Shown: positions 2,036-9,253 of the stretch, piece by piece
Numbering within the stretch: the first letter of the stretch is position 1
How the letters are laid out: the number at the start of each line of letters is the position of its first letter
Source of the DNA: Burkholderiales bacterium
Lineage (GTDB): Bacteria; Pseudomonadota; Gammaproteobacteria; Burkholderiales; Burkholderiaceae_D
Length of the DNA stretch: 36,215 nt
Reading direction: 5' to 3'
NCBI GenBank assembly: GCA_016196925.1
Contig: JACPWS010000032.1
Location: 1-36,215, forward strand
Notes under the pieces: generated by a model
What the model saw: the letters and a program-made list of their open reading frames with translations, nothing else
The model's database searches: none
Told to the model about the DNA's origin: nothing
Made by a program: the position numbers and the translations under genes

Positions 2036-2050
2036 AATTTCCTTTTCAGA

Positions 2051-2096
2051 CAACAAAGCCGCCATGTGGAAAATGTATTGCGGCTTTGTTGTTTTT
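2051..2096 (+). terminator. Rho-independent terminator after pssA
   Basis: A perfect 12-bp stem, CAACAAAGCCGC (2051-2062) with GCGGCTTTGTTG (2080-2091), encloses a 17-nt loop and is followed by a T-rich tract (2092-2096). It separates the pssA transcript from the leuA leader. Confidence 0.75.
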
Positions 2097-2133: not shown

Positions 2134-2162
2134 TTGCGCTTTTCGGTAATCGCGCTTATAGT
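2134..2162 (+). promoter_or_regulatory. Predicted sigma70 promoter of the leuA leader
   Basis: TTGCGC (2134-2139) and TATAGT (2157-2162) are separated by exactly 17 nt. The expected transcription start, about 7 nt after the -10 box, falls at 2169-2170, which is the A of the leader peptide ATG. If correct, the transcript would be leaderless or nearly so. Confidence 0.55.
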
Positions 2163-2169
2163 CTTTTGC

Positions 2170-2259
2170 ATGAACTTTGCATTCAAATCCTTCGCAACAC
2201 CAACATCAGCAGGCCTGTCTGGCCTGCTGATGCTATTCGTATTTCTACTAGTGCGGTAA
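2170..2259 (+). CDS. Putative leucine leader peptide upstream of leuA
   Basis: A 29-codon ORF, too short for routine gene calling, starts at the ATG at 2170 and stops with TAA at 2257-2259. Its second half reads LSGLLMLFVFLLV. Six of 13 residues there are Leu and two are Val, which is the composition expected of a sensor peptide for branched-chain amino acids. Three of the six Leu codons are CTA, a codon absent from all 512 codons of the following leuA gene. Codons 12-21 overlap a perfect hairpin (2204-2232), and eight T follow at 2352-2359. Position, Leu content and rare codon use resemble the leader peptides that control leu and ilv operons by attenuation. There is no ribosome binding site, and the predicted transcription start almost coincides with the ATG. 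The regulatory role is an inference. Confidence 0.6.
   Translation: MNFAFKSFATPTSAGLSGLLMLFVFLLVR
2204..2232 (+). promoter_or_regulatory. Leader hairpin overlapping the Leu peptide
   Basis: CATCAGCAGGCC (2204-2215) and GGCCTGCTGATG (2221-2232) form a perfect 12-bp stem with a 5-nt loop. The 3' arm includes the first Leu-Leu codons. The core of that arm, CTGCTGA (2224-2230), can also pair with TCAGCAG (2345-2351), directly before the T8 run at 2352-2359. The two pairings exclude each other, as in an attenuator. The distal pairing spans more than 100 nt and is not a strong stand-alone terminator. Confidence 0.5.
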
Positions 2260-2398
2260 CGCGCTAAATCCCCCCATACCCACAATTTGAGTAGTCTTGC
2301 CACCCCGGCGCGTCTTGCCAGGGTAGGCCGGAGAGTAACCGCATTCAGCAGTTTTTTTTCGATTTCCAACATTGACGTTCACTTCAGGAGAGTAAATC

Positions 2399-3937
2399 AT
2401 GGCCGACAAACTCATCATATTCGACACCACCTTGCGCGACGGCGAACAATCGCCGGGGGCATCGATGACCAAGGATGAAAAAATCCGCATCGCTAAACAA
2501 TTGGAACGCCTGAAAGTGGACGTGATCGAGGCCGGTTTTGCGGCGGCTTCGCCCGGCGATTTCGAGGCGATCAAGGCGATTGCTGCGACCATCAAGGATT
2601 CCACAATTTGCTCCCTGTCGCGCGCCAACGACCGCGACATCGCGCGCGCGGCCGAGGCCTTGGCGGCGGCGCAGCGCAAGCGCATCCATACCTTCATCGC
2701 GACTTCGCCCTTGCATATGGAAAAGAAGCTGCGCATGTCGCCCGATCAGGTCTTGGAACAAGCGATACAGGCGGTCCGTTATGCGCGCAATTTCACCGAC
2801 GATGTGGAATTCAGCCCGGAGGACGGCAGCCGTTCCGAGATGGATTTTCTGTGCCGTGTAATCGAAGCGGTAATTAAGGAAGGCGCCACCACCATCAACT
2901 TTGCCGATACCGTCGGCTACGGCGTACCCGAGTTGTACGGCAATATGCTGAAAACTTTGCGTGAACGCGTTCCCAATTCGGATAAGGCGATTTGGTCGGT
3001 GCATTGCCATAACGATCTTGGCATGGCGGTGGCCAATTCGCTGGCCGGTGTGATGATAGGTGGCGCGCGTCAGGTTGAATGTACGATCAACGGCTTGGGC
3101 GAGCGCGCCGGCAATACTGCGCTCGAAGAAATCGTGATGGCGGTGCGTACCCGCAAGGATTATTTCAATCTCGAACTCGGTATCGATGCCACGCAAATTG
3201 TGCCGGCTTCCAAGCTGGTGTCGCAAATCACCGGATTCGCGGTGCAGCCGAATAAAGCGGTGGTCGGCGCGAATGCCTTCGCCCATGCTTCCGGCATCCA
3301 TCAAGACGGCATTTTGAAGGCGCGCGATACTTACGAAATCATGCGCGCCGAAGACGTGGGCTGGAGCGCCAACAAGATCGTGCTCGGCAAACTGTCCGGC
3401 AGGAACGCCTTCAAGCAGCGCCTGGAACAGTTGGGCGTGGAGCTGGAATCCGAAGTCGAGGTCAACGCCGCATTCGCGCGCTTTAAAGATTTGGCGGATA
3501 AAAAATCGGAAATTTTCGATGAAGATATTTTGGCTCTGGTGTCGGATGAAGAGCATGCGCACGATAACGAGGCTTTCCATTTCGTTTCGCTGGCCCAGCA
3601 TTCCGAGACCGGCGAGCGGCCGGTGGCCAAGGTGGTGTTTTCCATCGAAGGCAAGGAAGTGAGCTGCGAAGGGCACGGCAACGGCCCGGTCGATGCGATC
3701 GTCAACGCGATCGAGTCGAAGACGCAAAGCGGCGCCGAGTTGTTATTGTTCTCGGTTAACGCGATCACGACCGGCACGCAGTCGCAAGGGGAGGTGACGA
3801 TGCGTTTATCCAAGTCTGGCCGTATCGTCAACGGCGTCGGGGCGGACCCCGATATCGTGGTGGCTTCCGCCAAGGCTTATCTGTCCGCCCTGAATAAGCT
3901 GCAATCGAAGGCGGAGAAGTTGAATCCGCAGATTTGA
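2399..3937 (+). CDS. leuA: 2-isopropylmalate synthase
   Basis: Condenses acetyl-CoA with 2-oxoisovalerate to give 2-isopropylmalate, the committed step of leucine synthesis in the cytoplasm. At 512 residues it has the usual length of the bacterial LeuA1 type. The N-terminal TIM-barrel starts with the signature [13 protein letters not shown] (R13, D14), and the metal site HCHNDLG has H202 and H204. A linker region near NGLGERAGN follows, then a C-terminal regulatory domain, which in this family binds leucine for feedback inhibition. The start at 2399 is supported by AGGAG at 2386-2390. Transcription probably begins at 2169, so the gene carries a leader of about 230 nt with a Leu-rich peptide and hairpins, which suggests a second layer of leucine control. 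No other leu gene is nearby. Confidence 0.96.
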
Positions 3938-9168: not shown

Positions 9169-9253
9169 GCCGACGTGGTGGAATTGGTAGACACGCTATC
9201 TTGAGGGGGTAGTGGCGCAAGCTGTACGAGTTCGAGTCTCGTCGTCGGCACCA
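9169..9253 (+). tRNA. tRNA-Leu (anticodon GAG)
   Basis: An 85-nt class II tRNA. The acceptor arms GCCGACG (9169-9175) and CGTCGGC (9243-9249) pair fully, and the CCA end is encoded (9251-9253). The anticodon stem CTATC/GGTAG encloses the loop TTGAGGG, giving anticodon GAG, which reads CTC and CTT. A variable arm and the T loop TTCGAGT are present. Its place between secG and nuoA is common in proteobacteria. Confidence 0.96.

What the first reader, a model, noticed from the sequence alone, without database searches (positions are those of the whole stretch)
2134..2398. Leu-rich, CTA-biased leader peptide before leuA, possibly leaderless
The sequence shows a 29-codon ORF (2170-2259) whose second half, LSGLLMLFVFLLV, has six Leu and two Val. 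Three of the six Leu codons are CTA. My reading of leuA found no in-frame CTA in 512 codons. A perfect hairpin covers codons 12-21, and one of its arms can alternatively pair just before a T8 run (2352-2359). Leader peptides with control codons are established in enteric leu and ilv operons. Applying that to this gene is inference. The odd points are that the predicted promoter (TTGCGC-17-TATAGT) starts transcription at about the ATG itself, so the peptide would be read from a leaderless mRNA, and that no compact terminator hairpin precedes the T8 run. The control may therefore differ from the classic attenuator.
Basis: partly seen in the sequence, partly recalled or inferred. Interest (0 to 1): 0.72.

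Follow-up and report, generated by a model that had tools for sequence, protein, structure and literature searches.

The report
Leaderless leucine-sensing switch before leuA
Upstream of the leucine-synthesis gene leuA lies a tiny open reading frame rich in a rare leucine codon, shared with many related bacteria, whose messenger is predicted to begin at the start codon itself and which would let leuA be read only when leucine runs short, probably through a stop signal unlike the textbook one.

Summary
Window 2170-2259 encodes a 29-codon peptide with 6 Leu, 3 of them CTA. Counterparts stand before leuA in 27 of 30 loci of the genus, 32 of 44 of a mainly Comamonadaceae set and 10 of 16 of a Burkholderia-type set. 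In the 26 distinct leaders of the genus CTA is 107 of 235 Leu codons, against 11 of 929 in leuA. Leaders lack a Shine-Dalgarno sequence (0 of 73; leuA 71 of 73) and the -10 box ends 6-8 nt before the start, so a leaderless start is predicted, not mapped. Two output types exist: Comamonadaceae-type leaders carry a hairpin-U terminator; the window type has none, but a stop-codon hairpin, a conserved unpaired C-rich box and a second hairpin. The box was found in five families, before leuA in 20 of 20 hits. Of 82 leaders, 35 have the box alone, 32 the terminator alone, 2 both, 13 neither. I predict ribosome-controlled attenuation with Rho-type termination at the box; the last step is inferred. Rfam and ten literature searches gave no match.

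The parts
2134..2162 (+). Promoter TTGCGC-17-TATAGT of the leuA unit; -10 ends 7 nt before the leader ATG
   Evidence: same arrangement in relatives; a search blind to the ATG put the best promoter 6-8 nt before a start codon in 17 of 29 loci of the genus. Below the cut
2170..2259 (+). Leader peptide ORF (29 codons + TAA), Leu/CTA rich, no Shine-Dalgarno, predicted leaderless
2204..2232 (+). Hairpin 1 inside the ORF (arms 2204-2215 and 2221-2232); 3' arm holds the Gly-Leu-Leu codons
   Evidence: 0 of 200 shuffles as good; each of the 8 inner arm positions pairs in 18-22 of 22 loci; C-G to G-C exchange in 4
2245..2250 (+). Last control codons CTA CTA, the second three codons before the stop
2249..2266 (+). 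Hairpin 2 around the stop codon (2249-2254 with 2261-2266)
   Evidence: 94.6% of cells paired in 28 sequences; no pair with change on both sides
2261..2289 (+). C-rich unpaired box GCGCTAAA-N-CCCACAATTTG, rut-like
2299..2328 (+). Hairpin 3, in the place of a terminator hairpin but without a U tract
   Evidence: coordinates; 5 of 8 pairs with changes on both sides
2399..3937 (+). leuA, 2-isopropylmalate synthase
   Evidence: NF002087.0, TIGR00973.1 above cut-off

Best explanation
This is a leucine attenuator: a Leu/CTA-rich leader peptide ORF, predicted to be translated from a leaderless messenger, precedes leuA, and the position of the ribosome on its CTA codons is predicted to decide whether transcription goes on into leuA or stops, most likely with Rho, at the conserved C-rich box and hairpin behind the ORF. 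Shown by sequence comparison: the ORF, its control-codon bias, the missing Shine-Dalgarno, the -10 spacing, hairpins 1 and 3 (changes on both sides of pairs), the box, and the absence of a hairpin-U terminator. Inferred: with enough leucine the ribosome reaches the stop codon and leaves, hairpin 2 forms, the box lies bare between two hairpins, Rho loads there and transcription ends in the roughly 110 nt before leuA. With little charged tRNA-Leu the ribosome waits on the last CTA codons, its front edge at the box (rough estimate from a standard footprint), hairpin 2 cannot form and RNA polymerase goes on. Hairpin 1 would be a pause that lets a ribosome start on the bare 5' ATG in time. The exact step from waiting ribosome to read-through is unresolved.
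For: Leader ORF in 27 of 30 loci of the genus (the window's own included), 26 distinct; CTA 107 of 235 Leu codons against 11 of 929 in leuA; likewise 72 of 154 against 5 of 1151 and 32 of 68 against 1 of 350 in two other sets (relatives are not independent). Shine-Dalgarno in 0 of 73 leaders but 71 of 73 leuA genes. Leaders of the genus, 21 to 66 codons long, stay open. Core structure: 93.4% of 531 cells paired, 6 of 19 pairs with changes on both sides, each reached by 0 of 500 shuffles. Box: 13 of 399 genomes of the order against 1 for the reversed pattern; 20 of 20 distinct hits before leuA. Box and U-tract terminator nearly exclude each other: 35 / 32 / 2 / 13 of 82. C over G around the box is matched by 0.13% of windows at the median of 26 loci. 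Box unpaired at 0.54-1.0 in all modelled ribosome states of 30 loci. In two loci whose leader start codon is gone, the core is gone too. Terminator-bearing relatives show the same kind of leader with an ordinary attenuator layout.
Against: No experiment. The candidate antiterminator pairing (A)CGCGC:GYGYGU shows no covariation (0 pairs with changes on both sides) and is absent from several relatives. Hairpin 2 has no pair changed on both sides, and one of the five measures (further pair types) was reached by 71 of 500 shuffles. Folding with modelled ribosomes gives no difference between a waiting and a terminating ribosome; hairpin 3 falls below 0.2 in both in 4 of 30 loci and is 0.0 in the free RNA of L094. 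The box is more sequence-specific (ACAAT) than Rho needs. Box-bearing genomes of family f20 use mainly CTG. L098 and L104 keep a leader with a decayed box or none. In six of nine close pairs of leaders nonsynonymous codon changes outnumber synonymous ones.
Confidence: 0.55

Rival explanations
1. Hairpin 3 is itself an intrinsic terminator that works without a proper U tract, so this is a classical leu attenuator in slightly degraded form.
For: Hairpin 3 is the best supported helix and sits where Comamonadaceae-type relatives have GCCCG-loop-CGGGC plus U tract.
Against: In the 26 loci of the genus and 5 others where hairpin 3 was located, T is 1-4 of the first 12 nt after it and at most 5 of any 8 nt starting within the next 14; no leader of the genus passed a uniform terminator scan.
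Confidence: 0.15
2. The box is the binding site of an unknown RNA-binding protein or small RNA, and the leader only adjusts access to it.
For: Box bases CCCACAAT are conserved across five families beyond what Rho needs and modelled as unpaired.
Against: No factor known; the box always came with a Leu leader (20 of 20); part of the box conservation outside the genus is by choice of the search pattern.
Confidence: 0.15
3. Translational control: the leader RNA hides the leuA ribosome site, like the actinobacterial LEU element.
For: LEU element precedent (PMC1262725); no U-tract terminator here.
Against: Modelled accessibility of the leuA initiation region shifts by at most about 0.2 and in no constant direction, and Leu run or box pair with it no better than shuffles (median fractions 0.83 and 0.90, n = 25).
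Confidence: 0.1
4. The short ORF is a chance reading frame and the conserved DNA is a promoter or untranslated RNA only.
For: Peptide sequence varies; nonsynonymous changes outnumber synonymous ones in six of nine close pairs.
Against: CTA excess of 38-fold or more over leuA in three sets; 73 leaders open from a start 6-8 nt behind a -10 box, though that spacing is partly by construction.
Confidence: 0.03

Closest known systems
Enteric leu operon attenuator with leader peptide LeuL (mostly recalled; E. coli 28-aa leader with 4 Leu in a passage of PMC6123439)
   Same: Leu control codons, rare CTA used (recalled), leader ORF just before leuA
   Different: No Shine-Dalgarno and start at the predicted 5' end; no U-tract terminator; conserved C-rich box; stop-codon hairpin
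Leaderless trpL of Sinorhizobium meliloti (PMC7298713, passages seen)
   Same: Leader peptide whose ATG is the 5' end of the RNA; amino-acid attenuator
   Different: Leu instead of Trp; leaderless start only predicted here; other RNA architecture
Leaderless polycysteine short ORFs of mycobacteria (Canestrari 2020, not held; passage in the review PMC9031893)
   Same: Leaderless amino-acid-rich short ORF tuning downstream genes
   Different: Said there to act on translation of downstream genes; cysteine; sequence not compared
Actinobacterial LEU element (PMC1262725, parts 1-2 of 3 read)
   Same: Leu-run leader ORF and conserved RNA before leuA without an obvious terminator
   Different: There the Leu run pairs with the leuA Shine-Dalgarno in a pseudoknot; tested here and no better than shuffles
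Rho-dependent leader control of E. coli tna operon (recalled; named as precedent in PMC1262725)
   Same: Ribosome at the leader end, C-rich site behind it, Rho-type stop proposed
   Different: tna responds to free tryptophan by a stalled terminating ribosome (recalled); here control codons

Membership tests
Classical transcription attenuator | Leader ORF enriched in codons of the end product | tested here: met
Classical transcription attenuator | Intrinsic terminator (GC hairpin plus U tract) before the structural gene | tested here: not met
Classical transcription attenuator | Mutually exclusive antiterminator pairing | tested here: inconclusive
   86% of cells paired but no covariation
Classical transcription attenuator | Leucine changes read-through | not testable with these tools
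   needs expression data
Leaderless leader peptide | No Shine-Dalgarno before the leader start | tested here: met
   0 of 73
Leaderless leader peptide | Promoter spacing puts the start site at the ATG | tested here: met
   promoter itself predicted
Leaderless leader peptide | Mapped 5' end at the ATG | not testable with these tools
Rho-dependent attenuator | Unpaired C-rich, G-poor stretch behind the leader | tested here: met
Rho-dependent attenuator | Sensitivity to Rho inhibition | not testable with these tools
   bench test
Actinobacterial LEU element | Leu codon run pairs with leuA Shine-Dalgarno | tested here: not met
   n = 25
Any Rfam family | Match at the gathering score in the leader region | tested here: not met
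   window; 12 relatives

The most novel reading that the evidence does not exclude
A leaderless leucine attenuator spread through the Burkholderiales has two interchangeable outputs: an intrinsic terminator in Comamonadaceae-type genomes, and in Undibacterium and four other families a dedicated RNA box (GCGCUAAA-N-CCCACAAUYYG) that recruits Rho or an unknown factor when a terminating ribosome leaves the leader.
Probability: 0.35. Interest if true: 0.75.

Novelty: new variant of a known kind. Interest (0 to 1): 0.6.

Why it matters
If true, it adds leucine to the few leader peptides read from leaderless messengers, and shows how one control leader keeps its sensor while its termination device is swapped between an intrinsic and a box-dependent form. 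Both forms occur in named genera, so the exchange could be tested directly.

Tried and rejected
Alternative pairing of hairpin 1 with the stretch before T8: present in the window, otherwise only a different G-U pairing in L106, none in the other 23 of 25 loci. A first version of this test (printed result 1 of 25) looked only at each locus's longest pairing and so missed the window's own; it was replaced. Pairing of hairpin 1's 3' arm with hairpin 3's 3' arm: seen in several loci, not tested against shuffles, not claimed. Antiterminator (A)CGCGC:GYGYGU: no covariation, left open. LEU-element-like pairing with the leuA ribosome site: not better than shuffles, rejected. In family f42 a 7-bp box to ribosome-site match is no better than shuffles (0.20-0.26), dropped. 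Translational switch by folding with ribosome blocks: none seen. Rfam at a relaxed threshold gave four sub-threshold hits, all on the other strand. Alignment A2 aligned hairpin 2 worse than A1 and was not used. Literature: ten searches listed no paper whose title or abstract start describes a Burkholderiales leuA leader; most listed papers were not opened.

Full report
What is there. leuA (2399-3937) is 2-isopropylmalate synthase. The gene before it, a CDP-alcohol phosphatidyltransferase (1178-2035; the name pssA is recalled), is followed by a perfect 13-bp inverted repeat with a 17-nt loop and then T4 (2050-2096, read; one search allows loops of 3-8 and did not list it), so leuA probably needs its own promoter. 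The promoter has 8 of 12 consensus bases and lies below the cut.

Conservation of the ORF. I examined 110 leuA loci. After setting aside L001, L002, L005 and L011, which repeat genomes among L081-L110, 106 remain, sorted by me into four sets (L027 fell into two). Leaders were found by a rule that demands a -10 box 5-8 nt before an ATG or GTG and at least 17% Leu, so the spacing is partly by construction. Found: 27 of 30 loci of the genus, the window's own included (missing: L086, cut by the contig end; L100 and L103, start codon lost), 32 of 44, 10 of 16, and 5 of 17. Spacing was 6-8 nt in all of these. A search blind to the start codon put the best promoter 6-8 nt before a start in 17 of 29, 3 of 5, 12 of 14 and 16 of 31 loci. 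A Shine-Dalgarno match stands before 0 of 73 leaders and 71 of 73 leuA genes. No leader was found in 12 of 17 loci of the fourth set, among them Collimonas, Herbaspirillum, Massilia, Rugamonas, Janthinobacterium and Pseudoduganella. Read by eye, in Massilia, Rugamonas, Janthinobacterium and Pseudoduganella a coding sequence reaches close to leuA, while in Collimonas and Herbaspirillum a terminator-like repeat lies between.

Control codons. CTA is 46%, 47% and 47% of leader Leu codons in the first three sets and 1.2%, 0.4% and 0.3% of leuA Leu codons in the same loci; in the fourth set 7 of 35 against 7 of 175. In Salmonella the rare CUA codons of the leu leader are known to matter (recalled). 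Box-bearing genomes of family f20 instead use mainly CTG, which tells against CTA being essential everywhere. Of nine close pairs of leaders, nonsynonymous codon changes outnumber synonymous ones in six and only synonymous ones occur in three, so it is codon content rather than peptide sequence that is kept.

RNA architecture. Hairpin 1 lies inside the ORF. In 22 distinct loci of the genus that could be put in register (L098 and L104 could not) each of the eight inner arm positions pairs in 18-22, and one is exchanged from C-G to G-C in 4. The best repeat of the leader was reached by at most 10 of 200 codon shuffles in 19 of 27 leaders of the genus (in L096 it is another hairpin), and by many in L094, L101 and L106. 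Behind the control codons an alignment of 28 sequences (A1) supports a stop-codon hairpin, a hairpin 3 and a basal stem: 93.4% of 531 cells paired, 6 of 19 pairs with changes on both sides, both reached by 0 of 500 shuffles; slid controls at most 52% paired; one further measure was reached by 71 of 500. Five of the six pairs are in hairpin 3, one in the basal stem, none in hairpin 2. A covariance model found one place in the own genome, the leuA leader, and 10 of 399 genomes of the order (strict filters).

The box. Between hairpins 2 and 3 lies an unpaired, C-rich, G-poor stretch. The pattern GCGCTAAA-N(2-14)-CCCACAATYYG occurs in 13 of 399 genomes of the order, in five genera of five families, against 1 for the reversed pattern, and in 1 of 274 genomes of the class sample, the own genome. 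Follow-up in the genus or families concerned gave 3 of 3, 8 of 61, 2 of 10 and 4 of 32, seven of them new. All 20 distinct hits lie before leuA behind a Leu-rich ORF (the three of the window's genus); in 19 of the 20 a -10-like box ends 6-8 nt before the ATG (L129: 9). The highest C-minus-G window around the box is reached by 0 to 2.9% of single windows of the same locus, median 0.13%, in 26 loci of the genus (a maximum is compared with single windows, which favours it somewhat).

Two outputs. With one uniform scan of 82 distinct leaders, 35 have the box (by a looser expression than the search pattern) and no hairpin-U terminator, 32 the terminator and no box, 2 both (weak U tract), 13 neither; leaving out the 10 that were fetched because of the box or the model: 27, 32, 0 and 13 of 72. 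The 13 are nine Burkholderia, Paraburkholderia or Caballeronia loci, L084 and L094 (variant boxes), L098 and L104. In terminator-bearing leaders the codons after the Leu run (often His-Gly-Arg) often spell ACGGGC, complementary to the terminator arm: at least 5 bp in 26 of 31, though shuffles reach this fairly often (median 0.076). That is an ordinary attenuator layout. Where the leader start codon is gone (L100, L103) no box was found either; the reverse is not strict, since L098 and L104 keep a leader with a decayed box or none.

Mechanism. Ribosome-controlled attenuation is the reading that best fits a control-codon leader placed before a hairpin, in one lineage with and in another without a U tract. 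Rho is the simplest device for the lineage without. The weak point is the switch: the candidate antiterminator has no covariation support, and folding of 30 loci with modelled ribosomes shows no difference between a waiting and a terminating ribosome and no constant change at the leuA ribosome site; in 4 of 30 hairpin 3 is lost in both states. So the sensor is well supported, the termination device is inferred, and the coupling is open.

Novelty. No Rfam match in the leader region. Papers: PMC1262725 parts 1-2 of 3 read; passages only of PMC7298713, PMC6123439, PMC13236596, PMC7563307, PMC9031893 and PMC4603805. PMC4603805 and PMC7563307 report leaderless messengers in Burkholderia and Cupriavidus; in their main texts the terms leucine, isopropylmalate and attenuat do not occur. 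The library lacks most subscription journals and supplementary files could not be looked up, so an earlier description cannot be excluded.

Noticed in passing
window 2050-2096: Perfect 13-bp inverted repeat with a 17-nt loop followed by T4, after the CDP-alcohol phosphatidyltransferase gene; a likely terminator that isolates leuA
   Followed up: partly
L100, L103 leuA upstream: Promoter kept, but leader start codon and the box/hairpin core are absent together in two genomes of the genus
   Followed up: partly
L019, L050 upstream of leuA: CTA-rich leaderless leader with neither box nor U-tract terminator; a hairpin CGCCAGCGGTGGCG follows
   Followed up: no
L043:19-86: Rfam ilvH RNA (RF02993) about 2.9 kb upstream of leuA in an Acidovorax genome
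   Followed up: no
window 9169-9253: tRNA-Leu with anticodon gag
   Followed up: no
L116, L118, L119, L120 before leuA: Four genomes of one family keep AAATCAGATAGTTAGGAGCTGATCGTG unchanged around the leuA start, a possible stem around the ribosome site
   Followed up: partly
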